Below, one piece after another: positions 3,001 to 60,490 of a stretch of 64,000 nt of DNA. Under the pieces are notes generated by a model that had not been told where the DNA came from, did no database searches, and worked only from the letters and a program-made list of their open reading frames with translations. Every line of letters starts with the position of its first letter. Positions within the stretch are counted from its first letter, which is position 1. The stretch lies in contig OY979718.1 in assembly GCA_963855995.1 (NCBI GenBank), positions 48,271,559 through 48,335,558 of the forward strand, in the 5' to 3' direction. A program made the translations under genes and the position numbers. This DNA is from Muricea muricata. Taxonomy: Eukaryota; Cnidaria; Anthozoa; Malacalcyonacea; Plexauridae.

Positions 3001-6000
3001 CCGGCAAATCTGATTTGGCTGAAGGGTAGATTAAGGTAGCGGTAGATGTGTTGGAAGCCAAATCTGAACCTCTCTAATATCTCCAGGAGCAGAGACTGTG
3101 CTTTTGTGAGCAAACAATAAAGCAGTAAAAAAAAAGCCTGGCCAGTCACATGGCTTTGTGTAGAGTAAACACGTTATACAACAATTTTTCATGTATAGTT
3201 TACAAGGTTTGTTTCCGATAACATGCACTTAGAAACATTCCTTGCCTTTTAGTGCAACACCATTTCTTTGGATGGAAATTAAAACATCCTCCAATCGGTC
3301 TGTTAATTGTTGTCGATCACTGAAACCACTAAAAGCCAAAAACAAGAAAAGTAAGTAAACTGTTTTTCAACTTTAAAGAGATATAGCAATATTTTCTCTT
3401 TGGCAAATCAACAAGAAATAATTGTAATATCCGCTGTTAAATTTTTGGTAATATGCTTTGTTTCTCAACTATTTTGAAGTTCAAATTACTCTAGCCATCC
3501 CGCCATCTTACGGAAAATCTTCCCTGCTTGTGACATCATGGTTTTTACGAATATCCAATATGGCCGGTAACTATATATTTCAGAAACCAAGCATGCATGT
3601 TTTAAAAAATAATTAACAACGGATATCATTACATTATAGTTATTTAAAAGGAGAAAATCGATTACTCAATGAAAAACATACTACCTCATCCTTTTAAGCA
3701 AACTTTCTAGAATACCAGCTTTTTAAATATTTTATTAGAAAATGGCTCTCGCAGCAGGTAACTGATTACTGTCTCAGAATACAATGTTCCAAACTAGCTA
3801 CACACAGAGAAAAAATTCTGAACGAAAGTGTATTCTTTCCTATAGATTTTTGCTTAACAATGCCCTACTTTAATCTCATATGGATTTCTAAAGTGGCGGT
3901 ATCTACACCCTGTTAATAATTATTATGCAAATGAGAAAATTATCGATATCTCCAGTAGCATTGACACCATAAAAATAAGAATAAAACAACATGAGCTTTA
4001 CATAATGGTTTAAGTTTATACGAAGTGCAATGGAGCAAGAATAGTTACCTCCAAAGTAATTGATTTTTTGCATAAAACTCTCCTAATTAATGTAAATAAT
4101 TATTCAGCAACCCTTATAAAAACCAGCGAAAATCTCACTCAGTCTGTTAAAAGTTAGCAATATGGGACGTAAAACAGATCTAAAACCTGAGGAGAAGCAA
4201 AGAATAGTAGAATTGTTAAGCCACGTTAAGCTACCCAGTTGTTAACCAGTTTGGATATTTCAAAGTTAATTCATCGAGATCATCGCACAGTCAAAAGATT
4301 TATGGAAGATAGTAATAAAGTGAGGGGGAGGGCAGATTAAGGAAAGTTGCGAAAGATTTCTCATAGGGAAATCAGCTCAGTAAAGAAAACGTTATCAAAA
4401 ATTCCTCATTCAACAAGTGCCAAGATATTTCATGAAGCTGGAGTGCCATCAAGATCCAGAGCTGGACGGTGCAAGATCTTAAGAAGCATTGGAAAAGTTA
4501 CAAAGCAAACTATTAAACCACCATTGAAACAAAGACATAAGCTGGCACGCTTGGACTGGGCTAAGTCAGGCATGAAAACCAATTTCGAAAATGTTTTGTT
4601 CACTGACGAGTCTCGGGCAACTCTGGATGGTCCAGATGGTTGGATGAGTGCCTGGCTACTCAATGGTACAAAGCCACAGAGCAAGATCAGGCAGCAACAA
4701 GGCAGTGGAGGTGTAATGATTTGGGCGGAAATCATTAATAATCAAATTGTGGACCCTTTTCGTGTGCCCAATGGGGTTAAGATGTATGCTAAATCGTATG
4801 TCGACTTCCTAAACAAAATTTCCTTCCTTGGTATAAGAAACAACCACTAGCATCAAAGAGGAAGATGATTTTCATGCACGACAATGCCCCTTCCCACGCA
4901 GCTCATTACACTCGAGAAGCATTAACCTAATTTGGGTTTAAGGAAGCACGTTTCATGCTGTGGCCAGCATGTTCACCCGGTCTCAACCCCATCGAGAACT
5001 TCTGGTCAATACTAAAGCGCAAAATATACGAAGATGGCAATACTCATCTAAGAATTGTGTTTGGGAAGAAATTCAAAGATGGGCAGCTGCTGTAGACATG
5101 CTGTAGACACCATTAAAACGTTAACAGATTCAATGAACAATAGACTTATTAAAGTGATGGGTGCAAAAGGGGGTCACATTCATTACCAACCATTAGAACC
5201 AGTATGTTTATGCAAGAGAAAGATTTGATTTTAATTGACTGTTATTGAAATATATGTGGTCTGGATTTTTAGTTCATCTGAGGTGAACTGTCCACATTGT
5301 ATATGTTATCAGTGCCTAGTGTACGGTTTTAAAAAGTTAAGATTAAATAATGAGCGGCTTTTCATATTTATTGCATAATAATTATTTTCGTAAATTTTGA
5401 GTGTAAAGGGGAAAATACTCCATAAAATTAAAATTATACAGTCGATTAACTCCAAAATTGCTGAAAATTCCAAGAATTCGATAAATTCTATGTTGTTGTA
5501 GTCTCATTGTCATAGTTTCAATGCTTTTTGAGATATCGCAGATATTCGCATTTGCATAATAATTATTAACAGGGTGTATTCCGTGGGACTTTTTTGGCGC
5601 GATGTTACCGTACGCGCTTACGTCTCGATTTTGGGTACATTTAATAACACTCTTATGTGCAGTGTATAATACGAAGTATAACGGATGGGGGGGGGGGGGG
5701 GGGGCGAGGAGAGAGAAACAGTGAATCGCGATCGCGTGGATATTTTACATATGGCTTTTAATAACATACACCGTTTGATTGAATTAATAGCCCTGAAATT
5801 TGCATGTGAATGAAGGACTCTGTTTTTTCATATATCCTGCAGTTAACTACAATGGTTCAATACCCAATGAAAGTGAAAGTCACATCAAACTACATGAGTC
5901 AGCAACAATATTTGTGATATGACAAAGGCGAGACAGTATATACGATTGCCTTTTTGAATCCCATATTTTTTCTTCACAAAATATCTGATAACTCAATCTT

Positions 6001-27090: not shown

Positions 27091-27515
27091 AAGTGCTGTA
27101 CAATGTTCTGTTGTATATTGTTTTAAATGTGTTGCGCTGCGTCTGCGCTGCCATTCCATGCTTCTGCGTTTTGTGGTTGGTGGTTGTTATGGACTCGTGT
27201 CTCGTTGTTTTTCTGAGTGAGAGAGAAAGTGAGTAAATGAGTGAGTGGGTCAATATATAACTAGGTTAGGCGAAAAACAACGACGACATGAGGGGTGAGG
27301 TTGTGGTGAAGGATCGGTAATGGGTTCACACTTGCATTGCGCGCGCTTGCGATCGTATATTTTGTTGTATTGTCGTGTCGTATTCATGTCGTATCGTTAC
27401 TGTCCTGCACAGCATCTTTCCATATGGATCGTGTACATATAAACAAGTCAAATATACCTCAGACCATATGCCTAACAAAGTGCCGGACAAATATAATATA
27501 CATGAAACCAGACGT

Positions 27516-30500
27516 ATATAACAGAATGGTCAAGTACTTATTCATGACAGACCATATTTATAACGGAATGGTCAAGTACTTATTCATGAGAGACCATATT
27601 TATAACGGAATGGTTAAGTACTTATTCATGAGAGACCATATTTATAACGGAATGGTCAAGTACTTGTTCATGAGAGACCATATTTATATTGGATGGTCAA
27701 GCATTTATTCATGAGAGACCATATTTATAACAGAATGGTCAAGTACTTATTCATGAGAGACCATATTTATAACGGAATGGTCAAGTACTTATTCAAGAGA
27801 GACCATATTTATAACGGAATGGTCAAGTACTTATTCATGAGAGACCATATTTATATCGGATGGTCAAGCATTTATTCATGAGAGACCATATTTATAACGG
27901 AATGGTCAAGTACTTATTCATGACAGACCATATTTATAACGGAATGGTCAAGTACTTATTCATGAGAGACCATATTTATAACGGAATGGTCAAGTACTTA
28001 TTAATGAGAAACCATATTTATAAAAGAATGGTCAAGTATTTATTCATGAGAGACCATATTTATAACGTGATGGTCAAGTATTTATTCATGAAATACCATA
28101 TTTATAACAGAATGGTCAAGTACTTATTCATGAGAGACCATATTTATAACGGAATGGTCAAGTACTTATTCAAGAGAGACCATATTTATAACGGAATGGT
28201 CAAGTACTTATTCATGAGAGACCATATTTATATCGGATGGTCAAGCATTTATTCATGAGAGAGCATATTTATAACGGAATGGTCAAGTACTTATTCGTGA
28301 GAGACTATATTTATAACGGAATGGTCAAGTACTTATTAATGAGAGACCCTATTTATAACAGAATGGTCAAGTACTTATTAATGAGAGACCATATTTATAA
28401 CAGAATGGTGAAGTAGTTATTCATGAGAGACCATATTTATAACGGAACGAATGGTCAAGTACTTACTCATCAGAGACCATTTTTGTAACGAAATAGTCAA
28501 ATATTCATAAAAGACCATATTTATAACAGAATGGTCAAGTATTTATTCATGACAGACCATATTTATAACGGAATGGTCAAGTTCTATTCATGAGAGACCA
28601 TATTTATATCGGATGGTCAAGCATTTGTTCATGAGAGACCATATTTATAACGGAATGGTCAAGTACTTATTCATGAGAGACCATATTTATAACAGAATGG
28701 TCAAGTACTTATTCATGAAAGACCATATTTATAACGGGATGGTCAAGTACTTATTCATGAGAGGCCATATTTATAACAGAATGGTCAAGTATTTTTCATG
28801 AGAGACCATATTTATAACAGAATGGTCAAATATTTTTCATGAAAGACCATATTTATAACGGAATGGTCAAGTACTTATTCATGAGAGACCATATTTATAA
28901 CAGAATGGTCAAGTATTTTTCATGAGAGACCATATTTATAACGGAATGGTCAAGTACTTATTCATGAGAGACCATATTTATAACAGAATGGTCAAGTACT
29001 TACTCATGAAAGACCATATTTATAACAGAATGGTCAAGTACTTACTCATGAAAGACCATATTTATAACGGGATGGTCAAGTACTTATTCATGAGAGGCCA
29101 TATTTATAACAGAATGGTCAAGAACTTATTCATGAGAAACCCTATTTATAACGGAATGGTCAAGTACTTATTCATGAGAGACCATATTTATAACGTGATG
29201 GTCAAGTATTTATTCATGAAAGACCATATTTATAACAGAATGGTCAAGTACTTATTCATGAAAGACCATATTTATAACAGAATGGTCAAGTACTTATTCA
29301 TGAAAGACCATATTTATAACGGGATGGTCAAGTACTTATTCATGAGAGGCCATATTTATAACAGAATGGTCAAGTATTTTTCATGAGAGACCATATTTAT
29401 AACAGAATGGTCAAATATTTTTCATGAGAGACCATATTTATAACGGAATGGTCAAGTACTTATTCATGAAAGACCATATTTATAACGGGATGGTCAAGTA
29501 CTTATTCATGAGAGACCATATTTATAACAGAATGGTCAAGTATTTTTCATGAGAGACCATATTTATAACGGAATGGTCAAGTACTTATTTATGAGAGACC
29601 ATATTTATAACAGAATGGTCAAGTACTTATTCATGAAAGACCATATTTATAACGGGATGGTCAAGTACTTATTCATGAGAGGCCATATTTATAACAGAAT
29701 GGTCAAGTACTTATTCATGAGAGACCATATTTATAACGGAATGGTCAAGTACTTATTCATGAGAGACCATATTTATAACAGAATGGTCAAGTACTTATTC
29801 ATGAGAGACCATATTTATAACAGAATGGTCAAGTACTTATTCATGAGAGACCATATTTATAACGGAATGGTCAAGTATTTATTCATGAGAGACCATATTT
29901 ATAACGTGATGGTCAAGTATTTATTCATGAAAGACCATATTTATAACAGAATGGTCAAGTACTTATTCATGAAAGACCATATTTATAACAGAATGGTGAA
30001 GTAGTTATTCATGAGAGACCATATTTATAACGGAACGAATGGTCAAGTACTTACTCATCAGAGACCATTTTTGTAACGAAATAGTCAAATATTCATAAAA
30101 GACCATATTTATAACAGAATGGTCAAGTATTTATTCATGACAGACCATATTTATAACGGAATGGTCAAGTTCTATTCATGAGAAACCATATTTATATCGG
30201 ATGGTCAAGTACTTATTCATGAGAGGCCATATTTATAACAGAATGGTCAAGTATTTTTCATGAGAGACCATATTTATAACGGAATGGTCAAGTACTTATT
30301 CATGAGAGACCATATTTATAACAGAATGGTCAAGTACTTATTCATGAGAGACCATATTTATAACAGAATGGTCAAGTACTTATTCATGAGAGACCATATT
30401 TATAACGGAATGGTCAAGTATTTATTCATGAGAGACCATATTTATAACGTGATGGTCAAGTATTTATTCATGAAAGACCATATTTATAACAGAATGGTCA

Positions 30501-31183
30501 AGTACTTATTCATGAAAGACCATATTTATAACGAAATGGTCAAGTACTTATTCATGAGAGACCATATTTATAACAGAATGGTCAAGTACTTATTCATGAA
30601 AGACCATATTTATAACGGAATGGTCAAGTACTTATTAATGAGAGACCCTATTTATAACGGAATGGTCAAGTACTTATTCATGAGAGACCATATTTATAAC
30701 GGAATGGTCAAGTACTTATTAATGAGAAACCATATTTATTAAAGAATGGTCAAGTATTTATTCATGAGAGACCATATTTATAACGTGATGGTCAAGTATT
30801 TATTCATGAAAGACCATATTTATAACAGAATGGTCAAGTACTTATTCATGAAAGACCATATTTATAACGGAATGGTCAAGTACTTATTCATGAGAGACCA
30901 TATTTATAACAGAATGGTCAAGTACTTATTCATGAGAGACCATATTTATAACGGAATGGTCAAGTATTTATTGATGAGAGACCATATTTATAACGTGATG
31001 GTCAAGTATTTATTCATGAAAGACCATATTTATAACAGAATGGTCAAGTACTTATTCATGAGAGACCATATTTATAACAGAATGGTCAAGTACTTATTCA
31101 TGAGAGACCATATTTATAACAGAATGGTCAAGTATTTATGCATGAGAGACCATATTTATAACGGAATGGTCAAATACTTATAG
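27516..31183. repeat. 42-bp minisatellite, about 87 copies, with higher-order structure
   Basis: The unit contains GAATGGTCAAGTACTTATTC followed by ATGAGAGACCATATTTATAA. 42 is a multiple of 3, and one plus-strand frame stays open over many units, reading MVKYLFMRDHIYNG again and again; other units change the frame or add stops. An irregular block with GGTGAAGTAGTTATTC and a shortened GTTCTATTC unit occurs at about 28403-28600 and again at 29991-30188, an offset of 1588 bp, showing a segmental duplication inside the array. I regard it as a satellite and not a gene. Confidence 0.95.
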
Positions 31184-47700: not shown

Positions 47701-48638
47701 TAACTTCTTTATCTTTGAGGAAGCTTATTCCCAAAAAGGCCGATGGGTGTTTGCACATAATAATAAAAATCTTAGGCCAAAACCTCTTGTTGCAGTTTAT
47801 CATCTGAAGTAACAAAAATCCATACCTTTGGGCCACCGTGTAATAAATTCTATTTATGTTGCTGTGCGGCCTGCAAAAAAGTAGGGGTGCCACTATCTAC
47901 TGACTTCAAAAATAATGGAGGCTGTATGTTCATTCTGTGCTGTAGAAATTTGACAAAACATTGATCCTTCTCTAGTTCAACCAAAATGTCCCACTTTCAA
48001 TATTACTTTCCCAACTCACACAAAACGGACTTGATTTTGTGACTGACACCCTAGATCCTGCCAGTATCCTACAAAGATCCTAATAAAATATCTCATAAAA
48101 TGTCTCATAAAGCAGTCTTGCTTGTTTTTTAAATTATACCTAAACATTGCCTGTACATGCTTACTTGAGAGAACACTGTTTTGCCTGTTGAAAACAATGA
48201 AACATTAAAATGTGGGGAAATTCATAGAAAACATAGTAGAAAATTAATACCTTCATAGGCATCATCAAGGTCCATCATGCGTAAATTTGCTTGTGCCAAT
48301 ACTGCTTAGCAAAACAATTTTTGAGCATGTTATAATATTTTTTTGAAAGCAAGTTTTGTTTCGGAAATGTTCACATTAATAAAGAAACACTGACATGACG
48401 CCTAATGTTTCCGCGGTGATGTTTTCAGGGCTTGAAAATGAACTCACCCAATACACTGATGACTTGTGCTCTCTCCTTGAGTTTGATTTCTAGATGATTC
48501 TGGCTCTTCTAAGTGCATGCCTATCGCCATTTCTAAATTCCCATTGCAAACCTCCAATAATGTCTGGGCTCTACGCTCAGTAGCACCTGTTATGCTCACA
48601 AATTGCTCGACTAAAGATGTATGACCTCCGTCCTCCAT
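38731..48638 (-). CDS. UBXN7: UBX domain-containing protein 7, complete, 11 exons
   Basis: Exons: 48638-48448, 46106-46039, 45313-45245, 44678-44569, 43797-43651, 43040-42944, 41306-41253, 40653-40574, 40405-40021, 39571-39489, 38907-38731. All phases agree; 486 residues against 489 in human. N-terminal UBA (VEQFVSITGATERRAQTLLE, residues 11-45), VRAPIPQ motif, VFDAFRDFQAE, thioredoxin-like UAS domain (about 147-262, with LNRDVWSNEAVRNI), ubiquitin-interacting motif EDSQLEAAIAASLKE (about 280-294), acidic linker, and C-terminal UBX domain with the p97-binding TNFPRKKLS loop (FPR about 460-462). Family knowledge: UBXN7 links the p97/VCP segregase to ubiquitinated clients and cullin ligases such as the VHL-HIF1A complex. 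The start chosen matches the human N-terminus in length; an in-frame ATG 24 codons upstream (48710) is the alternative. Introns host gypsy, hAT, Mutator-like and Harbinger insertions. Confidence 0.97.
41738..42767. mobile_element. nonautonomous hAT element in UBXN7 intron 6
   Basis: Ends CAGAGGCGTAGGAA and, reversed, CAGTAGCGTAGGAA, flanked by a perfect 8-bp duplication CTACTTGG (41730-41737, 42768-42775). 1030 bp; no transposase. It carries a second, nested element. Confidence 0.92.
41802..42261. mobile_element. Mutator-like element nested in the hAT element
   Basis: Ends AGCCTCGTCCCCAGGC and, reversed, AGCCTCGTTCCCAGGC, flanked by the 11-bp direct repeat AGGCGCGAGCC (41791-41801, 42262-42272). 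The duplicated site is hAT sequence, so this insertion is the younger of the two. 460 bp, noncoding. Confidence 0.88.
42776..42826. repeat. 50-bp palindrome
   Basis: GGTCTTTACGG and AATATTAAACC read in both directions around CACGG. It begins inside the right copy of the hAT target duplication, in UBXN7 intron 6. Confidence 0.85.
43294..43478. mobile_element. PIF/Harbinger-type MITE, 185 bp
   Basis: Ends AGGCCTGTTCAAACGAA, perfect inverted match, flanked by TAA on both sides (43291-43293, 43479-43481). The interior is built from repeated CCAACATGTTGG-like words. In UBXN7 intron 5. Confidence 0.88.
44355..44490. repeat. dispersed repeat, copy 1
   Basis: CTCAAATCTCAATCCCATTT, TTGTTTTTTGGCC, then AGCCAATTCCTAGCTCCCA-like text. 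It matches 59845-59990 in the same order and orientation (copy 2). In UBXN7 intron 3-4 region; class unknown. Confidence 0.6.
45483..45663. mobile_element. hAT-type MITE, 181 bp
   Basis: CAGTGGCATAGCCAGGG at the left, CCTAACCATGCCACTG at the right, flanked by TCTGTAGG (45475-45482) and TCTGTAGC (45664-45671). The interior is G-rich then C-rich (runs of 12 or more), so it can fold back on itself. In the UBXN7 intron between exons 2 and 3. Confidence 0.82.
46800..47890 (-). pseudogene. Ty3/gypsy reverse transcriptase remnant in UBXN7 intron 1
   Basis: Minus-strand pieces in several frames: FLKDKEVSFHIDQMVPPVAS, YREKLSAHLQGLRQENKIVE, WISNVVITEKRQKGKSHMNV, DLTEANKALHHTERSVETIQ, then LEEKGLMLRRENAP and RDLIKKSTKFLWTAQSKKAY. 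These follow the order of gypsy reverse transcriptase (lead-in, fingers, thumb) into RNase H. The YREKLSAH segment occurs twice. Catalytic YxDD region is scrambled; stops and frameshifts throughout. Same strand as UBXN7. Confidence 0.85.
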
Positions 48639-48710
48639 ATTGAAAATTATGATTGTGGCCTCTGATAGGCTTAACAACCCCCCGGTCATTAATCCGAAGA
48701 TCTTACTCAT

Positions 48711-49159
48711 GGTTCGTACACGTGAACGAGAGTAAAATTGAAGGACGTTTTAAGGACTTTCAAGGTCATATATCAGGAAATTCAAAAACTGGACTAGAAA
48801 TTTAAAAGAATTGTCAAATAATGTTCTAACTGCAACCTAAATGAATTTGATACAGATTTACAAGTGATGAATATTTAATTTTCATGTCAAAAGTGTTCCA
48901 TATGCCAAAAATTTAGTGCTCTGAAACTAAAAGACAATTCAAGGTCTTTCAAGCACTTCTTTATAAATTCAAGGACTTTCAAGACCTTGAATCTTTATTT
49001 CTAAATTCCAGGACATTTAAGGACATTCAAGTCTTGTAGTCTTGTACGAATCCTGTTACTTCAAATAACTTCAAATAGCTATTAAAATTCTTGGGTTTCG
49101 TGTGACGTCATAAATTTTACTGGGGTCAACTCCAAATCGATACACAGTGAGCAGGGGTG
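48711..49159. other. sequence upstream of UBXN7
   Basis: Presumed UBXN7 promoter and 5' region, with repeated CAAGGACTTTCAAG-like words (about 48750-49030). No TATA box can be singled out. Confidence 0.4.
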
Positions 49160-49390
49160 GTAACGTTACGTTACATATACGGGCTCGTTACCAATACGGG
49201 CGTGTTACATATACGGGCTATGAGATTGCTACACATTACGCAATCGGCATTCGTATATTTACACTTGTTTTAAAACCTTGATATGCATAAACATGTATAT
49301 ATAACATAATGTCTAATATATAATAATATTTAACATGTTATAACTTAAAACATATAACTTGTAATATACGCATTATGTATATAAAATACC

Positions 49391-50899
49391 CCGCATATGT
49401 AACATAGAGCCCGTATATCAACACAGAGCTCGTATATGTAACATGGAGCCCGTATATTAACATAGAGCCCGTATATTAACACAGAGCCCGTATATGTAAC
49501 ATAGAGCCCGTATATGTAAAATAGACGGAGTATATTAACATAGAGCCCGTATATGTAACATGGAGCCCATATATGTAACATGGAGCCCGTATATGTAACA
49601 TGGAGCCCGTATATGTAACATAGAGCCCGTATATGTAACATGGAGCCCGTATATGTAACATGGAGCCCGTATATGTAACATAGAGCCCGTATATGTAACA
49701 TAGAGCCCGTATATGTAACATAGAGCCCATATATGTAACATAGAGCCCATATATTAACACAGAGCCCGTTTATGTAACATAGAGCCCGTTTATGTAACAT
49801 GGAGCCCGTATATTAACATAGAGCCCGTATATGTAACATGGAGCCCGTATATTAACATACAGCCCGTATATGTAACATGGAGCCCCTATATTAACATAGA
49901 GCCCGTATATTAACACAGAGACCGTATATGTAACATAGAGCCCGTATATGTAACATAGAGCCCGTATATGTAACATGGAGCCCGTATATGTAACATGGAG
50001 CCCGTATATGTAACATGGAGCCCGTATATGTAACATAGAGCCCGTATATGTAACATAGAGCCCGTATATGTAACATGGAGCCGGTATATTAACACAGAGC
50101 CCGTATATGTAACATGGAGCCCGTATATGTAACATGGAACCCGCGTATATTAACACAGAGCCCGTATATATGTAACATAGAGCCAGTATATGTAACATAG
50201 AGCCCGTATATGTAACATGGAGCCCGTATATTAACATGGAGCCCGTATATTAACATAGAGCCCGTATATTAACACAGAGACCGTATATGTAACATAGAGC
50301 CCGTATATGTAACATAGACGGAGAAAATTAACATAGAGCCCGTATATGTAACATGGAGCCCGTATATGTAACATGGAGCCCGTATATGTAACATGGAGCC
50401 CGTATGTAACATGGAGCCCGTATATGTAACATAGACGGAGTATATTAACATAGAGCCCGTATATGTAACATGGAGCCCGTATATGTAACATGGAGCCCGT
50501 ATATGTAACATGGAGCCCGTATATGTAACATAGAGCCCGTATATGTAACATAGAGCCCGTATATGTAACATAGAGCACATATATTAACACAGAGCCCGTA
50601 TATGTAACATAGAGCCCGTTTATGTAACATGGAGCCCGTATATTAACATAGAGCCCGTATATGTAACATGGAGCCCGTATATTAACATAGAGCCCGTATA
50701 TGTAACACAGAGACCGTATATGTAACATAGAGCCCGTACATGTAACATAGAGCCAGTATATGTAACATAGAGCTAGTATATGTAACATAGAGCCCGTATA
50801 TGTAACATGGAGCCCGTATATGTAACATAGACCGAGTATACTAACATAGAGCCAGTATATATTAACATAGAGCCCGTAGATTAACACAGAGCCCGCGTA
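49391..50899. repeat. 20-bp subterminal minisatellite, about 75 copies
   Basis: Unit GAGCCCGTATATGTAACATG with variants (TAACATAGAGCCC, shortened TATATTAACA units, a recurring AGACGGAGTATATTAAC block). The core CCCGTATATGTAACAT is the motif that makes up the terminal repeats of the element, here reversed relative to the left terminus. Because 20 is not a multiple of 3, the reverse strand has three overlapping open frames with a 20-residue period; these are not genes. Confidence 0.95.
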
Positions 50900-51507
50900 T
50901 ACCAGAAATACCTCTAACCATCTTTTACAAGTTCGTAAATTCTTTTAACAGATAGAAACTGGTTTAGAAATAGCACCGAAAAAAAATTTTTTGTGAATAT
51001 CATTTATTATGAAATATTCGTGCATAAAAGCAAAGAATTCTATTCACAAAGGCTTTAGAAAAGTTTACATATATAGTATCTGATATCTTTTTGTAAGCAA
51101 TACTGTTTATAAACGTTTGATTATATTTTATTTTCTTAAAATTTTGAAACACAAAACAGTACAAGAACACACCGAATATTTGTTGGACATTTTGACATGG
51201 ATTTTGTTTGAAATACATGCTATGATTGTGCATAATTACCCGCTATAGGACTATATTTTAAAACAATTATACTATTCCTTTCGTAGCACATTAAACAATC
51301 ATTTAGTGAGGTCGAGTAGGATATGAGGAATTATTAAGGCACAGTTTGTGTTATCTACCGAAGCAACACTAGTCGAGGCCTTAATAATTTCTCATATCCC
51401 ACAGATATGGCGATTTCGTCCACCGCTCTTAACCAATTCTAGTATAAAGTAGATAATGTCCCCATAACTGTTCGGTAATAGATCCACAGTATGCTATGAA
51501 GTCTAAT

Positions 51508-51698
51508 GCCTAGTTTCCATTAAGTCGTGAGTGTCTTCTATATATCAAAGTGACCGATGTGATAAAATATATGTACGCTGATCTACACTTAATATGACTA
51601 ATTTGAATACGGTCCACAAACGAAAAGATAGATCTAGACTATGTCACATCGTCGACAATGACTTGGCTACGACAGCTACGAGCAAATGGAAACTAGGC
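51508..51698. mobile_element. small MITE abutting the end of the transposon gene
   Basis: GCCTAGTTTCCATT at the left and its complement AATGGAAACTAGGC-like at the right. The right edge lies one base from the stop codon of the metallopeptidase frame (51700-51702). The duplication is not clear (flanks TAA / TTT). Confidence 0.65.
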
Positions 51699-51699
51699 T

Positions 51700-52740
51700 T
51701 TACCACGCTACCTTAGCCTTAAATATGTCCGTTTCATCAATTTCCATATCACAGTATGGTTTGTGAAACTCCTGGAGTCTTGATCGCAGCGCACGTGATA
51801 CTTGTTTGCCAAGACTTTTGAATTCTTTCCCGTGTGACCTTCCCCTGATGTTTTGCTTTATCATCTTTGCGTGCACCATTTCATGAATCAGCGTTTTGAA
51901 AATTGTTAACTTGTCAGTGTGTGTTTCTGGAAAGATTATGATGAACATAAATTCGCCATGACTGTAAGTAATACCAAGGTCCCCATGGCACTTCTTCTCA
52001 CCTGTACAATTGTTGAACTCCTTGATACCTACAAAACCAACGTTGTCATTACCAGGAGGAAGCTCGCCGTTAAATGCTACTTCGTTTAATTTATCGTACA
52101 GTGCCACTAAATCCTGATGATCTTCGTTTTTCTTGGACACCTCGCGTAATTTTATGAAGCATTTCTCTCTTTCCTGACGTCGGGCCTCTTTCCATCTTTT
52201 TGCCTCTTCTTCTCGTTTGGTGCATTTGATGCATTTCCATTCGGGATCATCGAAATTTCCCTGCTCGCAATCTCTGTGGAACCACCTCTTGCATTTCTTG
52301 CTCTGTCCCATTAGCTTCCCATCATCTGGCGAGGTACAATGACAATGCACCCAGCACACCCACTCAAAAAGATACTTCTCAATAGGTGGATCTCTCCGTT
52401 TGCTCGTAGAAACCAGGAATGTTGCAAAATCTCGATCAACAAACAACCGCATAAGATTAGGACCGATGACTTCTTGATTCCATCTTAATGTGAGACGATC
52501 CTCTCCAAAACATAGCGCAATGGTGTTTGACACTGCATACAGACCACAAGCAGCACCACCTTTTTGTTGCTGAACGTTAGCCACAGCCATGTTAAAAAAG
52601 CCAACTGAGCTTGCCAACTTGCAGGCACATTGCTCAACATTGATTGGATAGCTGACTTTACCGCCCTTTCGATTCAGGTTTATATAACTATCGTATATGC
52701 AGACATCACCATTCCTGGACTTGATGTTCGATATTGTTAC
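51700..52740 (-). CDS. transposon protein, C-terminal part: Ulp1 catalytic half, PHD finger, SprT-type metallopeptidase
   Basis: Continues the same frame as the upstream transposase block after a TAA. From 52740 it reads VTISNIKSRNGDVCIYDSY, the acidic part of a Ulp1/C48 protease (Asp in YDSY), then QQQKGGAACGLYA (Gln and nucleophile Cys). Next comes a PHD-type finger, CWVHCHC... CKRWFHRDC... WKCIKC, and a basic, coiled-coil-like stretch (EEEAKRWKEARRQEREK). Last is a SprT-like domain, LYDKLNEVAFNGELPP to SHGKEFKSL, with the zinc motif HEMVH and a third His in SHGKEF. SprT proteases such as SPRTN digest proteins crosslinked to DNA; here it may act on the transposase-DNA complex or chromatin (inference). 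The first internal Met is at about codon 51, so alone this piece lacks a good start. Confidence 0.85.
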   Translation of the reverse strand, partial: VTISNIKSRNGDVCIYDSYINLNRKGGKVSYPINVEQCACKLASSVGFFNMAVANVQQQKGGAACGLYAVSNTIALCFGEDRLTLRWNQEVIGPNLMRLFVDRDFATFLVSTSKRRDPPIEKYLFEWVCWVHCHCTSPDDGKLMGQSKKCKRWFHRDCEQGNFDDPEWKCIKCTKREEEAKRWKEARRQEREKCFIKLREVSKKNEDHQDLVALYDKLNEVAFNGELPPGNDNVGFVGIKEFNNCTGEKKCHGDLGITYSHGEFMFIIIFPETHTDKLTIFKTLIHEMVHAKMIKQNIRGRSHGKEFKSLGKQVSRALRSRLQEFHKPYCDMEIDETDIFKAKVAW

Positions 52741-55050
52741 TTAGTGATTGCCACGGACATTTACAATCTGGACAAAATGTACACAGTTTTCTTTCCGGAA
52801 TCCGTATTTGACTGCGGGAATCAGGTCTTGTAGTCCGCCAATATCAGCTGTACAAGGGTGGGCACGCAGGATCTTAAACACCGCCAGCATAATGCGATCA
52901 TTCAACCAATGTCCTTTTTCTAAAATCGTCTTGTCAATGATGTGCAAACCCAGTTCTTTTATCCAGAAGTCTTCCTCAGTCTGTAATTCTTCAAATTCTG
53001 GAGAGTTGGTTGTATTCATTACGCGAGGTTCATTTGACGTATCTGGTGGTCGACTGTAAAATACGCATGGATCATCGTCTGGACTGCTTGGGCAATCTGT
53101 CAAAATAACTTGACTTTGCGATGCACTTTTTATCTCACTTTGTAGAGTTTCTTCAATTTCGGAAGTTTGGGCAGGAGGTAGTAGGCTTGTATCTGACATA
53201 TCGGGCTGCTTCGTAGAAGTAGTTGTTGCTTTCGTGGGTGTTGTTGCGGGTGCACGTTTTGTTTTGTCAAATATGGCTCGTCCAAATTGATCTTCAGTTA
53301 CTGCGAACGATGATAACTGGGCAATATTACTGATGTTTCTTTCATTAATACGTTCATTCAGCAAGTCAATATTTGATCGGAATAAAAAAATATGATTAAC
53401 AGGAGTCATAGAGTTTAAGAATCGGCTATCTCTTTTAAACACATTGTATAACTGCTCTTGAAGTTGGGTGTTTATCAAACCGTTTAACTGTCTAACATGC
53501 GTTACTCTCCGCAACACCTCACGCTCATTCTGGGGATTGCATTCATGAAATCGGTCAAATAAACAGAAGTGGTCGTTTGAACCAGTAATTGGGTGGCCAG
53601 TAACCGCTGTATTTTCTGAACCTTGAACATTCAACCAATCCAACGAAATGTCTAAGTGACGTGCCTTTGCTTCTTGAACATTTTCGGGTGTTGGTTCCAT
53701 CAACATACCGCTGTTAGGCGAACACATTCCATTTTTTCTACGATTACCGTGTGCCGCGACCAGGTTTGCAACATCAACTATTGTGACGTTTGGTTGGTGT
53801 TTCATCGACAGCAAAATGTCGACATAATCACGGGGACTCTCTGAACGAATAAGGAATTTCAATGCATAAACAACGCCATGGGGGCAAGTTCTGGATGCCC
53901 ATCCTCCAGAACAACCCCATAATTTGCTGAAAGCTTTCTTGAATTTCTCATCGTTATTTTGAACAGCATTTTTAATGTTCATAATAATGTCTAGCTTGCT
54001 GCCAGTTCCAGTCAGCCCAAGTTTTTTGGCAAAGGATCGTACCTCTTTCAGCGTTGAATGGTGAAGCATCTCCAGCAATCTTTCTTCAGTTACTTCGCGA
54101 CAATCGTCTTCGATTTTTCCGTCTTCCACTTTAACTTTTCTGTGCTCTGTATTGAATACACGTTTGCTTTCTCTCGTATCGCTGCCAATAAACGGTGACC
54201 AGTTCAACAAATCTGGTTTAACACAAAACTCTTGCACTGCAACCCCCGGAAACCCTCGGACAATCATAGAGAACTCAACATTTTCCCAAAACAATTCACA
54301 GTCTACAACATCATTTTCCTCCGAATCTTGCTCGTACTCGTCTGGAAGGCGCAACGATTCTGCTGGACACTGAAATGATACTTTACGGTTTAGATCCATG
54401 TTCATGATGGCAGGGTGATGTCCACATATTGAGCAGTTAAATTTGTATTCGTGGCAACTTAGAGCATCAAAATGAAGAAAAGCATTAAGGATCGTACGGC
54501 TGTTTAACTTAGTTTTCAAACTCCTTTCTAAAACTTCGGTCGCGCTGCCAATTGGTATGTGACATTGAAGGCTCTCTCTGAAATAGTTGCACACGTCCAA
54601 TCCTATTAAAAAGGTATCATTAAAATTATGCACGCCTTCGTCGTGTTCTTGGTAGCGGAAGCACATCTCACAAGACCCACATTTCACAAAATATGTTTCT
54701 GCGTTGGTTATTACAAAATCCATCGTAACTACCGTTGCTTTTGCCGTTATTCGTATGGGCTTACTCAGGTGAACATCGCAAAACGGACATCTCTTTTCAA
54801 CGGGAGTGTAACGTCGAGGAACGGATTTAGATTTATCACGAGTGGCTGACATTGGAATTCTTTTATTTGCTTTTAGGTATTTGCACATGTTTGCAACCAT
54901 ACGTTCGTCAGTAGGAGGATAAAAAAGTCCATTATTGTCAAACGATGCATCTGTTTCAGCACTCTCGTCTCCTATATCATTGCTATTATCGTCGTCTCTA
55001 AAACTACGGAATCGTCCAACTTGTCGACACTGCGCAGATACCACAAACAA
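52741..55050 (-). CDS. KDZ/Zisupton-like transposase core with SAP domain and N-half of a Ulp1 protease
   Basis: 769 codons open. Residues 88-130 form a cysteine cluster (CPFC... CGSCEMC) followed by NFNDTFLIGLDVCNYF, typical of the CxC clusters tied to KDZ transposases and of the host protein HMGXB3. FNCSICGHHPAIMNMDLNRK (about 205-223) supplies a likely first catalytic Asp (219), VTIVDVANL a second (426), and INTQLQEQL the Glu (532), flanked by CPHGVVYALKFLIRSESPRD and LFDRFHECNPQNE. Residues 325-365 look like a SAP DNA-binding helix pair. A low-complexity acidic/Thr-rich linker precedes the start of a Ulp1 domain (700-769) that ends at the catalytic His. The next codon is TAA where families have Trp. 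It should act in the nucleus as a DDE transposase. Catalytic assignments are mine from motif order. Confidence 0.85.
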   Translation of the reverse strand: MFVVSAQCRQVGRFRSFRDDDNSNDIGDESAETDASFDNNGLFYPPTDERMVANMCKYLKANKRIPMSATRDKSKSVPRRYTPVEKRCPFCDVHLSKPIRITAKATVVTMDFVITNAETYFVKCGSCEMCFRYQEHDEGVHNFNDTFLIGLDVCNYFRESLQCHIPIGSATEVLERSLKTKLNSRTILNAFLHFDALSCHEYKFNCSICGHHPAIMNMDLNRKVSFQCPAESLRLPDEYEQDSEENDVVDCELFWENVEFSMIVRGFPGVAVQEFCVKPDLLNWSPFIGSDTRESKRVFNTEHRKVKVEDGKIEDDCREVTEERLLEMLHHSTLKEVRSFAKKLGLTGTGSKLDIIMNIKNAVQNNDEKFKKAFSKLWGCSGGWASRTCPHGVVYALKFLIRSESPRDYVDILLSMKHQPNVTIVDVANLVAAHGNRRKNGMCSPNSGMLMEPTPENVQEAKARHLDISLDWLNVQGSENTAVTGHPITGSNDHFCLFDRFHECNPQNEREVLRRVTHVRQLNGLINTQLQEQLYNVFKRDSRFLNSMTPVNHIFLFRSNIDLLNERINERNISNIAQLSSFAVTEDQFGRAIFDKTKRAPATTPTKATTTSTKQPDMSDTSLLPPAQTSEIEETLQSEIKSASQSQVILTDCPSSPDDDPCVFYSRPPDTSNEPRVMNTTNSPEFEELQTEEDFWIKELGLHIIDKTILEKGHWLNDRIMLAVFKILRAHPCTADIGGLQDLIPAVKYGFRKENCVHFVQIVNVRGNH

Positions 55051-55775
55051 ACAGCCTTATGTACACAACCACGTTTACGGCGACAACATCCACAATCGAG
55101 TTGTCCATTTTTGAGGTCACATGTTACGATAACTCTTCCTAGTTTGGAATAATAGTGGACGCCGCCATCGTATACAGAAAAATGAATGTATCTTTCGCCA
55201 TCTTCAAAACTGACAATTAAATCTGCTTTGTTTTCAGATGCTGCTTGCAAAAGAGATATGCATTGATTGATGCGTTCTTCTTTTATCATTTTAAATTCTC
55301 CTTCACACGAAAGGTCATCAAGATCACTTCTGCGTAGTTGCACTTTTTCTTTATACATTGTTTTCACACCAACTTCCCTGATGTGGTGACATTCCATAGC
55401 ATTCATGCCACTTCTCCAGGCAACTCCCATGTAATCTCGGCAACTGTTGCTTTCACAAAAGGCATTTTTGTTGCCACTTTCTTCACTTGGAGACCAAACA
55501 CATTTCCGGACATGAAGTGGATAACTAACGCCTCCATGTGAACTTTTGCGCACCATATAAATTCCTCTTGTTTCATCAACGCAAACATTAGTTGGAATTA
55601 TTTTCTTGTGGATGTCTCTTTGATGCCTTGGAAGGCTTCCCACATCCATTACTTTTTTGCACGCTGGGCACTCTTTTCTTTCTGATTTTTGCCTTTTCGG
55701 CTTGGGCTCTTCTATTTCCTCAGTCGTCGCCGAACTCTCTTTCTCTTCCAAGAGTGGTGTGGCGCTTGATTTTAT
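54972..55775 (-). CDS. transposon protein, SWIM-finger segment
   Basis: Starts after an in-frame TAA shared with the zinc-finger block and has an NLS-like KPKRQKSERK. A C2H2 finger follows (CPACKKVMDVGSLPRHQRDIH), then a Cys-rich middle (CVWSPSEES... CESNSC) and a SWIM finger CGCCRRKRGCVH (CxC...CxH). The frame then runs past the true junction: the SWIM block and the transposase block overlap by 79 bases (54972-55050) with a -1 shift, so they were one protein before a frameshift. No slippery heptamer stands out there. SWIM fingers bind DNA or proteins and are standard in KDZ-type transposases. Confidence 0.82.
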   Translation of the reverse strand: MKSSATPLLEEKESSATTEEIEEPKPKRQKSERKECPACKKVMDVGSLPRHQRDIHKKIIPTNVCVDETRGIYMVRKSSHGGVSYPLHVRKCVWSPSEESGNKNAFCESNSCRDYMGVAWRSGMNAMECHHIREVGVKTMYKEKVQLRRSDLDDLSCEGEFKMIKEERINQCISLLQAASENKADLIVSFEDGERYIHFSVYDGGVHYYSKLGRVIVTCDLKNGQLDCGCCRRKRGCVHKAVCLWYLRSVDKLDDSVVLETTIIAMI

Positions 55776-56084
55776 TTATTTTTCACTGAAATGATTTTCG
55801 TAATGTTTTAAAAATCTGTTTCGATTAATTATAGTCTTTTTACATTTCGGGCAATGATAATGAGCTCGACCACAACCACTTTCGCCATGATTTAATTTGC
55901 AAGGAAAACAAGACTGACCATTTACGACAATAACTCTATTTAGATGCGCTTCTTTAAAGTGCCTTCGACACTTGTATTGCGAGTCAAACGATTTTCCACA
56001 AAGCTTGCAATGCTTATGCAGCACACATGTGTTCTTGCATGGCAACGTAAATTCACTACAATTTATAAAGTAATCTTGATAGTC
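55776..56084 (-). CDS. transposon protein, N-terminal C2H2 zinc-finger segment
   Basis: Two C2H2 fingers, CKLCGKSFDSQYKCRRHFKEAH and CPKCKKTIINRNRFLKHYENH, separated by another Cys/His stretch. Frame open from 56084 with no ATG, so a 5' exon is likely; a pyrimidine tract ending in TTTGCAG (about 56097) could be its acceptor. Ends in TAA, eight codons before the first Leu/Glu-rich codons of the SWIM block in the same frame, so this stop is probably a mutation within one long frame. Confidence 0.75.
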   Translation of the reverse strand, partial: DYQDYFINCSEFTLPCKNTCVLHKHCKLCGKSFDSQYKCRRHFKEAHLNRVIVVNGQSCFPCKLNHGESGCGRAHYHCPKCKKTIINRNRFLKHYENHFSEK

Positions 56085-59000
56085 ATCCTACATTTGCTGC
56101 AAAAGAAATAAAAATTAACACCTTAATAGTAAACGAAAGGAATGATTCCAGTTATTCAACCATCAACGTAAGGTGGCTCGATGCAGTTTTCAAAACACCA
56201 GGGGCCGGTTGTATAAAACTCTTAATCACTTTTTTAATCACTGTTTTGTAGTTAAATAGTAATTAAGTAGAAGGTACGTGGTTCTGATTGGTTGACGTTT
56301 CCCCTAATCATAGTTAACTTTAATTACTTTTTTATACAACCGGCCCCAGGTGTTTAAGGAATAAGTAAAAAACAATAATCACAAGTTATGAAATTTTTAA
56401 AACAATACATAAAACAATACAAATACTTCAACCTTTTTAGCCAAAATTTTTGTTACCTTTTTCACATTTGTATGTACTAAAACGATTATTAGCCTCAGGC
56501 TCATATAGGTAAATAGCAGCCTCCCGCACAGGCGTAGCTAGAACAATAATTAGAAGGGTGTCTATTATATCGCGTTCTGCCCGACGAGAAAAACAATCGA
56601 TTTAAAAAAATCGTATGGAAAAACGCGAATAGTATATGAATAAACAACCCCCCTAATTAACTACACCTACAATCCTAGAAAAAATATTCGTAGACTTCAA
56701 AACGTTAAACTATCTTTTATATGTTTCAGCATAATAATCCGCCTTTCGCAAAAAAATTGAATTGTGATTCTAACCCCCCCCCCCCCCCCTCCTGCGAACA
56801 ATGTTGGAAAAGCGAGCGTCTATTTGTATGGTGTGTGACCTTAATTCCGACATTGTAAAAGGAGGGGGGGATTGGGAAATACCATTAAAATTAGTTAAGT
56901 CTACGAATTAATTTCCAGGATTGTAGTTACCCCTGTTTCCTCCAGCCCTCGACAATGTCTCGGCCTGGAAACATATCTCCTTTACGATATGTAAGACCAG
57001 TGTCTCGTAATGTACGTGTACGTCAAAAATGGTGAGGGAGCGCAGGCTAAAAAGCGTTTCTGGCCGTTTTGCACTTTTCGGCCCGTTTGGTTTTTTTGAC
57101 TCGTTCGTCTCAAATGGCCGCACCGGCTCAAGCAGTCAAATACCTGCACCGCCTCGGGGTTCCCTCGGGGGTTCCTCGGAGGTCGCCACATTATACAGGG
57201 TGTCCCAAAAAAAATTCCCTCCGGAAATTTGTAGCATAGTTATTTAAGCAATAGGCCAGTTTGCAAGTTGTTACTCTCTACCAAAAGTTTAACATCATAT
57301 CTTCCTGAGTCCAACAGATTGAGGCCCTCAACTATTATCCGTCAGTGATACCTTTTGGTGGTCATACAAATACATCGAAGATCAGTATTTTTCATTTATT
57401 GAATAAATCGTATAGTTTGAACATTTCACGGTTCATGATTTCGATTTTATAAGAAAGAACATGCATGAGGTTTGCCGTTTGCCGTAAACGCCAATCTAAA
57501 GGTCTCTAATAAAATGCGTGGAACTTGAAGGCGGACACGTTGAAGGAAGAAATTGATGATATGGCATTTAAGCTAGTTTACGTTCTATTTCGTTATGTGT
57601 AAACCTTGTCAATTAAATGTGTTGTTAAACAATTTCACACTGTAAAGTAACCTCTGGGAATTTTTAATGTTAATAAATTATGCAAAACTTGGACAAGTCA
57701 GAATTTTGACCCTGCTTATTCCTGTACTTTTCAATTTCGAAAAAAAATATGTACACCACTTTTGATTACCCGCGAGGGAATAGGAGGGAAAACCTACATG
57801 GAACTTAATAATTATTTATACTGCAGCAATAAATATTTATTAAACTATATTCAATGCAATGACTGAAACGTATGGCTTACCTTTAATAATTGTTATATAT
57901 TTTCTCTTGAAATAATCGTCAAAGTGCAGACTCAGCTAAAGATTCTTTCATAAATAAATGCCAAATCAAATATATTCCATTACCAGCACGCAATGTTAAC
58001 ATCCAATGTTATTCGAGCATCCAATGTTATTCGGAGATTTGTAGCTTTTTCAAAGTAGCATATCCAAATAGCAGTAAGATTTTAATTTTTGGGACAAGTT
58101 CAGTTTTATTTATACTAATCGTTAGCGTGACGTTATAAGTCTTTGATCACGCAGAAATTGGTTTATCAGGGCGCAGTAAAGCACTTCGTTTACCGCGCCC
58201 TGGGCTTGTCTATTTTATTACGTAAGCGTGGACGTTAGGATTATTAGCATATACAGCGCCTCCTACAAAAATATTTTGCGTGACTAACAAAGTGACGTAA
58301 ATTGTATTTTTATATTGTTTTTTGATTTTTATTTTGCATATAACAGCACACAATTCTGTTGCAACTTTCGAGATTTTTCCATAATAGTGTAAGAATAATT
58401 TTTTTAATGCGACATACCCACCCAGTAATATATCTTTATCTCATTCGATGTTGTACTTTTATAACACAAATTAAAAAAATAATCGTGACAGTAAATTGTG
58501 TTCAGTTGATTTATTGTGAGCACAGAAGCTGGTCGAGCACCTGAGAATCCCCTCAACCAGCCCTAATGTTAACATGTATAGCGTTTCAGCTTGGAAAGCG
58601 CGACGCTGAGGTTTGTTTTACGAAGCTTCGATCGAATAATCTATTACTATACGAACATCCATGGCTATACAGTCATGGATGTTCGTATAGTCATAGATTA
58701 TTCTTGAATATTGCGAGAATCCACCCCACATTCCTGCCACACTTGGTATCGAGAAATGCACACACGCACGCATAGATTTAAAAATATTATCATGACGCAC
58801 AAGTCTGGCTCAGCTTGCGTTACTAGATATACAACAGTTTGTCTAACGACATTCAGCTTTGACCGCATCAGTGAAATGGAAAAGTTACATTATGCCAGAA
58901 ACAATATATAAACGCATGTATTTTGATTCATAAGACAGAAAGTCGCGCCGAATAAATGCCATGGTTAAATGCTTCATTAGCTGACAATGTTATAATATCT

Positions 59001-59239
59001 CAGACGAAATGAGAACATAAAATTCCTTAATTGCCGTATTGTATCATAGGATATCAAGATATAAGTACAATAAAATATGTTTGCGCAGAACTCGAGAAAA
59101 TGTATTATAACTCAATTTTAAAAATGCGCTTTACAACAGAGTTCGACATAATTTCAGGCATGTGTAAATTTCACGATAGATTAGTCAACACGTCGACATA
59201 ATGTAACTCAACACGCAATTTGTGGATGTGTAAATTGGA
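56085..59239. other. 5' region of the large transposon, no recognised exon
   Basis: Between the zinc-finger segment and the right terminal repeat. Contains a MITE, a lone mariner-like terminus (TACAGGGTGTCCCAAAA at about 57195), and a 44-bp palindrome (58647-58690, ACGAACATCCATGGC). The transposase promoter and first exon should lie here if the element was once complete. Confidence 0.5.
56202..56346. mobile_element. MITE within the large transposon
   Basis: Inverted ends GGGCCGGTTGTATAAAA, flanked by CAG (56199-56201, 56347-56349). 145 bp; a later insertion into the transposon, of unsettled superfamily. Confidence 0.7.
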
Positions 59240-59310
59240 TTACGCAATGTAGCCCGTATATGTAACATGCCCGTATATGTAACATGCCCGTATATGTAAC
59301 GTAACGTTAC

Positions 59311-60490
59311 GACATCATATGTACACAGTCACTGGAGGGAGATAATTTTTCACTGTATGTGTTGAACGTTTTTTTGGTTGCAATTATGTGCGATTTCGTG
59401 AGATTTGTTCACTCCAGTACAGTATAATCATCAATACATTTTGGGTTGACCCCCACTCAGATTTACAGCAAAATGCCCCAGTGAAACCAAAAAATAGGTA
59501 TTGGTATAGGAACATGTACAGGTAAAAGGCTAGGTAAAGTAATGTTCCCTTTTTGTAGAAATTTGTACAAGAATTCAAAAACATTTTGCAGCCAGGGTAC
59601 TTTGTACAGAAGGCATTTTCCCAAAATCTTAACTGGGAAAGTGTCTACTACCCTTGCAAAGGGGGCAAAATCGGTCAAAAAATCAAAAAATAAGATCGGT
59701 AGAATCACGCTTGTGCTTATTGTAAATGACAATCGCTGTGTGAAGCTGTGCAGTGTAAACGCCGTAGACCTGAAAGACAAGGAATCCGTATATTTTTACA
59801 AATCCGGAAACTTTTCCTATTGTGTAAACAGGGTCCTAGTAGATGTCTTGCTCAAATCTTAATCCCATTCCCATTTTCCATTGTTTTTTTTTGGCCCATA
59901 AATCCCAGTCCCAATCCATGGTGTCCTATTTTCACAGCAAAAATAGGCAATTCCCAGCCCCCATTTTGCCGCTTCAAGACCAGCTTGCAAGGTAATAATA
60001 AGTTATTGACTAGAATCTTTCGCTGCCAAAACGAAACGAAAACTCCTTCGATACTCGAATTTCCATACACAGAAAATATCATAAACAAAAGAAGAATTCT
60101 TCAATTTACATTCACCGTTTTTCCTATAAACTCATTATTTTCTATTAAAATTTGTGTACATGAATTGAAAATTATTTGAGCGTCCAGCCATGACACATGC
60201 ATTTTTATGTACTTTGATATTTATTATCTACAAGCGTTTAGACCAAAGTATAGGGAAAAGACAGTAGAGCCACTCAAATGAAGTTTGTGTGTCCACGCAT
60301 CTCATTACCATCATGCCAGCCAGTCAATTGCATTTTCTGGCCAATAAGAACGCTGAACTGGCTGGCGGCAGCCACTAAACTGTATAAGGATAGGGCGCCG
60401 TGTTGCACTGCTGAGTGGCCCTACTGTCCATTCCCTATACTGTGGTTCAGACTGCCATCCTATACCGATTATATTATATTTTCTTGGCCA
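59311..60490. other. intergenic sequence between transposon and deacetylase gene
   Basis: Holds copy 2 of the dispersed repeat (59845-59990, CTCAAATCTTAATCCCATTC) and the 3' flank of the deacetylase gene. No other gene recognised. Confidence 0.5.

What the first reader, a model, noticed from the sequence alone, without database searches (positions are those of the whole stretch)
49160..59310. Large KDZ/Zisupton-type transposon carrying two different proteases, a PHD finger and a SAP domain
One minus-strand frame (broken in three places) joins C2H2 fingers, SWIM, cysteine cluster, DDE-like core, SAP, Ulp1-type cysteine protease, PHD finger and SprT zinc metallopeptidase, inside matching inverted ends. 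Known KDZ elements carry SWIM, SAP and Ulp1-like parts. A SprT domain, known from DNA-protein crosslink repair, in the same polypeptide would give the element its own means to remove SUMO and to digest a protein bound to DNA. That function is inference.
Basis: partly seen in the sequence, partly recalled or inferred. Interest (0 to 1): 0.88.

Follow-up and report, generated by a model that had tools for sequence, protein, structure and literature searches.

The report
Jumping gene with two built-in proteases
This is a multi-copy cut-and-paste transposon in an animal genome whose transposase carries two protease domains, one of the kind that removes SUMO-like tags and one of the kind that digests proteins stuck to DNA, and distant relatives carry the same pair.

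The parts
49141..49148 (.). left 8-bp target site duplication TACACAGT
   Evidence: copies
49149..59321 (-). whole transposon (gene on the minus strand)
   Evidence: limits of copies; duplications
49157..49220 (+). left terminal inverted repeat, with three 17-bp motifs GTTACATATACGGGC.. (the middle one diverged)
49390..50895 (-). array of about 76 units of 20 bp built on the terminal-repeat motif (right-end orientation)
   Evidence: counts in other copies
51700..56093 (-). transposase frame incl. stop codon, about 1464 codons, broken in this copy by 3 stops and 1 frameshift
55608..56030 (-). C2H2-type zinc fingers
   Evidence: zf-C2H2_4 0.0041, below cut-off; mapping
55038..55136 (-). SWIM-type CxC...CxH cluster
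   Evidence: residues C334 C336 C343 H345 in 5 of 5 rows that reach it; mapping
54460..54747 (-). CxC4 cysteine cluster
   Evidence: Pfam PF18717 1.4e-9; mapping
54295..54417 (-). first strand of the RNase-H core with catalytic D567
53980..54081 (-). SAP domain inserted in the RNase-H core
53305..53979 (-). rest of the DDE core (D774, E880)
52390..52974 (-). Ulp1/SENP-type cysteine protease (H1117, D1135, Q1175, C1183); frame cut here in the window copy
52219..52353 (-). PHD finger, closest in sequence to H3-reading PHDs; one zinc Cys is Ser in the window copy
51703..52167 (-). SprT metalloprotease domain (HEMVH, third His H1421)
   Evidence: Pfam PF10263 9.5e-8
59250..59313 (-). right terminal inverted repeat
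59322..59329 (.). right 8-bp target site duplication TACACAGT

Best explanation
A recently multiplied cut-and-paste DNA transposon of the CxC4/HMGXB3 lineage. Its one protein recognises the terminal motif (three copies at each end and about 76 in an array near one end) with zinc fingers, SWIM and SAP, and cuts and joins DNA with an RNase-H/DDE core, leaving 8-bp duplications. A C-terminal module rides along: the Ulp1 domain removes SUMO or a related tag, PHD docks on histone H3 (perhaps K4-methylated, open chromatin), and SprT digests protein held on DNA. I think most likely that this module clears proteins from donor or target DNA around transposition, either the element's own bound transposase or marked host proteins, so that the gaps can be repaired. 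Shown: anatomy, mobility, active-site conservation, predicted folds. Inferred: all activities, what each part binds, and the order of steps. About 0.95 for what it is, about 0.42 for the mechanism (lowered from 0.45 on checking: the nearest Ulp1 fold is a NEDD8 protease tied with SUMO ones, and the abstract seen sets the SUMO route beside the SPRTN route).
Against: No activity is measured and no unbroken frame exists among 15 copies. Eleven relatives end after PHD without SprT, and fish and tetrapod relatives lack it, so the lineage does not need it to exist. SprT ends 43 residues after its third His, without a zinc ribbon. It is the least conserved domain (mean 32%); its shared within-genome changes are 3 silent and 4 not, too few to prove constraint. 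Sequence alone barely sees SPRTN (phmmer 0.52; Foldseek 0.031), and Foldseek gave nothing significant for the core (best E 0.57). Removing SUMO could as well protect a bound protein; PMC8441304 (abstract start) sets targeted SUMOylation beside the SPRTN route.
Confidence: 0.48

Rival explanations
1. The Ulp1-PHD-SprT module counters host silencing: it strips tags from, or degrades, chromatin repressors on the element so that it can be transcribed.
For: A PHD of the H3-reading type would place it on chromatin; one relative has OTU and one USP where others have Ulp1, all tag-removing proteases, which fits a changing host target. That animals silence transposons through SUMO is recalled.
Against: Does not by itself explain why a SprT protease stays behind the PHD in this clade.
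Confidence: 0.28
2. The SprT domain cuts its own polypeptide, separating the transposase from the accessory module or switching it off.
For: A variable linker (residues 931-1040, mean identity 21%; pLDDT under 50 over 343-431 of P0001) lies between core and module. SPRTN self-cleavage is recalled.
Against: The linker hardly aligns, so no kept cleavage site was seen there; none was searched for specifically.
Confidence: 0.13
3. The SprT domain no longer works and serves only as a binding or structural part.
For: Lowest identity of the domains; no zinc ribbon.
Against: The HExxH and third His are kept in 10 of 10 proteins that match the profile, with 24-42% identity over 21 pairs of seven sequences.
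Confidence: 0.1
4. It is a single-copy host gene of the HMGXB3 type.
For: HMGXB3 proteins of tetrapods and fish are distant relatives (E 8e-21 to 7e-12).
Against: 15 near-identical copies, inverted ends and 8-bp duplications, all 15 frames broken.
Confidence: 0.01

Closest known systems
KDZ (Kyakuja-Dileera-Zisupton) DNA transposons
   Same: 8-bp duplications as in Zisupton (PMC12730594, passages; Kyakuja 7 bp there), inverted ends, large transposase, cysteine cluster that Pfam names for KDZ transposases
   Different: Pfam KDZ core PF18758 not found; no SprT in the passages seen
Ginger1 DNA transposons (PMC2836005, passages)
   Same: transposase with a C-terminal Ulp1 or OTU protease; Ginger1-9_HM has Ulp1 plus PHD
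   Different: Gypsy-integrase-like core of another superfamily; no SprT in the passages seen
HMGXB3 host gene of vertebrates (HMG domain-containing protein 3)
   Same: CxC4 and part of the same core, found with the family profile
   Different: HMG box listed for 22 of 23; no match to the Ulp1, PHD or SprT profiles in 23 of 23; here it is mobile
SPRTN (Spartan) DNA-protein crosslink protease
   Different: no zinc ribbon after SprT here; fused to a transposase

Membership tests
KDZ/Zisupton | match to the KDZ core model PF18758 | tested here: not met
KDZ/Zisupton | CxC cysteine cluster | tested here: met
   CxC4 1.4e-9 in the window, 38.3 bits against cut-off 26.9
KDZ/Zisupton | terminal inverted repeats and 8-bp duplications | tested here: met
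   7 perfect, 1 shifted by a base, 3 without, of 11 copies with both ends readable; 3 without a found left end, 1 not examined
KDZ/Zisupton | DDE residues on an RNase-H fold | tested here: met
SprT-like metalloproteases | HExxH and third His on the SprT fold | tested here: met
SprT-like metalloproteases | proteolysis of DNA-bound protein | not testable with these tools
   needs biochemistry
Ulp1/SENP (C48) | His-Asp-Gln-Cys and fold | tested here: met
Ulp1/SENP (C48) | SUMO rather than NEDD8 or ubiquitin as the tag removed | tested here: inconclusive
   NEDD8 and SUMO proteases tie; SUMO proteases lead
Ginger1 | Gypsy-integrase-like core | not tested
   core aligned to CxC4/HMGXB3 relatives instead

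The most novel reading that the evidence does not exclude
A eukaryotic transposon that brings its own machine to take apart protein-DNA complexes: one polypeptide that cuts DNA, reads histone H3, removes SUMO-like tags and then digests the DNA-bound protein, including its own transposase complex, the job that the cell's unfoldase does for phage Mu (recalled). It would be the first transposase with a SPRTN-type protease that I know of.
Probability: 0.32. Interest if true: 0.82.

Novelty: new variant of a known kind. Interest (0 to 1): 0.64.

Why it matters
How eukaryotic transposase complexes are removed after joining is little known (recalled). A transposase with a SPRTN-type protease and a Ulp1-type protease would make that question testable in one protein. 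It also shows the lineage to which vertebrate HMGXB3 belongs carrying different tag-removing proteases in different relatives (Ulp1, OTU, USP) and, in one part of it, a metalloprotease.

Tried and rejected
Single-copy host gene: rejected. A second gene in the extra DNA that other copies carry at window 57715: four of the nine pieces were scanned and showed no frame above about 130 aa there. SprT remnants in the tails of 11 relatives that end after PHD: none better than E 0.13. Foldseek on the core: best E 0.57. In the tree P0023 was labelled degenerate for SprT; its HEMAH...H is intact, so that label, which came from a too narrow pattern, was wrong. Papers: Iyer et al. 2014 is not held. Searches for SprT with transposase or transposon terms listed no paper that joins them, judged by titles and abstract starts; one search listed 20 of 26 papers and 15 of 22, the others all. 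Genome-wide counts of the KDZ model, of the core and of the terminal motif, and the host's own SPRTN, could not be obtained: the genome search machine did not answer. Species of the window: not identified.

Full report
What is there. The window carries a DNA transposon at 49149-59321. Its ends are inverted repeats of 64 nt, 91% complementary, 10 kb apart, flanked by TACACAGT on both sides. A 1-kb stretch of its gene finds 15 places in the 453-Mb genome at 96-99% identity (a lower bound by the tool's own note). Pieces of the 14 other copies were fetched and compared. Of 15 copies, 7 have perfect 8-bp duplications (window, L009/10, L015/16, L021/22, L023/24, L025/26, L029/30), 1 has a matching one shifted by a base (L031/32), 3 have none (L013/14, L017/18, L019/20), in 3 the left end was not found (L011/12, L027/28, L033/34) and 1 was not examined (L035/36). 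The right end matched with at most 2 mismatches in 13 of 13 copies examined, the left end with at most 1 in 9 of 13.

Internal anatomy. Next to the left end lies an array of about 76 units of 20 bp (49390-50895), built on the 17-bp motif that also stands three times in each terminal repeat; the window has 56 matches with up to 2 mismatches, none expected by chance. The other copies show 19 to 67 motifs on the array strand in 13 of 14; L027 has none, and some pieces are cut or hold N. I read the array as a landing pad for the transposase; that is inference. Nine fetched pieces carry 1.7-3.5 kb of related DNA at window position 57715 (two of them, in L020 and L030, cut by the end of the piece), which the window copy, L010, L012 and L014 lack; L018 is deleted across the place. 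Four of the nine were scanned and showed no frame above about 130 aa there.

Relatives and evolution. Three searches returned 79 different proteins; one of them, P0012, shares only the Ulp1 part. The SprT profile matches 10 (P0001-P0006, P0009, P0013, P0023, P0026), and 10 of 10 keep HExxH...H. Two are from named sea cucumbers, Holothuria leucospilota and Apostichopus japonicus; one lies in a Sedimenticola bin and is probably animal DNA. Eleven proteins reach past PHD without SprT. In the core tree of 48 rows, one clade of 16 rows (support 99/97) holds the window family's row and 8 further SprT rows, the other 7 being proteins that end before PHD; the sea cucumbers fall outside it. The fewest changes of SprT on that tree are 2, early-ending rows not counted: one gain and one loss, or two gains. 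The crinoid relative P0039 has an OTU protease (1.1e-12) and P0056 a USP-type protease (2e-13), and neither matches the Ulp1 profile. Of 23 vertebrate HMGXB3-type proteins (P0057-P0079), 23 match CxC4 and core profiles weakly (the core match covers only part) and none the Ulp1, PHD or SprT profiles.

Selection. Among copies, single changes shared by three or more are depleted in amino-acid changes in the core (11 silent, 2 not) and the N-terminal part (11 and 6), less so elsewhere (CxC4-SAP 8 and 14, linker 5 and 8, Ulp1 9 and 9, PHD 3 and 2, SprT 3 and 4). Normalised, private changes lie at 0.65-1.13 in most regions, with Ulp1 at 0.33 and PHD at 2.0 on small numbers. Since subfamilies share breaks, some shared changes may postdate loss of function. 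Within the genome constraint on SprT is thus not shown; the case for it is the kept active site across sequences 24-42% identical in that domain.

How it may work. Crosslinked proteins are marked with SUMO and ubiquitin and SPRTN-type proteases digest them (PMC12279946 and PMC4559962, abstract starts in listing); PMC8441304 sets targeted SUMOylation beside the SPRTN route (abstract start), so a SUMO-removing domain could also work against digestion. A transposase that carries both activities plus a PHD of the H3-reading type could clear its own complex or a blocking host protein. Precedent for Ulp1, OTU and PHD on a transposase is Ginger1 (PMC2836005, passages), whose authors suggested a role in repair during or after transposition. 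I found no paper that puts SprT on a transposase, within an open-access library and by listing only.

Verdict. Observation confirmed; the label KDZ only partly supported, since PF18758 was not matched; function unproven. A new variant of a known kind. On checking I lowered the mechanism odds from 0.45 to 0.42 and the overall confidence from 0.50 to 0.48, because the Ulp1 fold ties with a NEDD8 protease and the literature seen does not put SUMO and SPRTN in one simple pathway.

Noticed in passing
window 48444-48749 (-): UBA-domain exon (UBA_4 3.6e-14) that looks like the first exon of a UBXN7-type host gene (name recalled); the element sits about 400 bp upstream of it, so it may lie in that gene's promoter region.
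   Followed up: partly
window 49390-50895: Satellite-like array made of the transposon's own terminal motif; 13 of 14 other copies carry 19-67 motifs. A possible route from transposon to satellite DNA.
   Followed up: partly
L009, L011, L013; L019, L021, L023, L025; L029, L031, L033: Copies of one subfamily share frame breaks, so broken copies seem to have been multiplied, presumably in trans.
   Followed up: partly
window 27310-31183: Long tandem array whose + strand frames repeat MVKYLFMRDHIYNG.
   Followed up: no
own genome: 58 of 85 matches are weak (25-37%) and lie at other places: they cover the Ulp1 part, some also the PHD, and none reaches the SprT part; probably other Ulp1-bearing elements or genes.
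   Followed up: no
window 4341-4850 (+): Tc1/mariner-like transposase fragment, judged by eye.
   Followed up: no
P0006: Protein of this family filed under a Sedimenticola metagenome bin, probably animal host DNA.
   Followed up: no
P0056: A relative of 1455 aa with a USP-type deubiquitinase after the core.
   Followed up: partly
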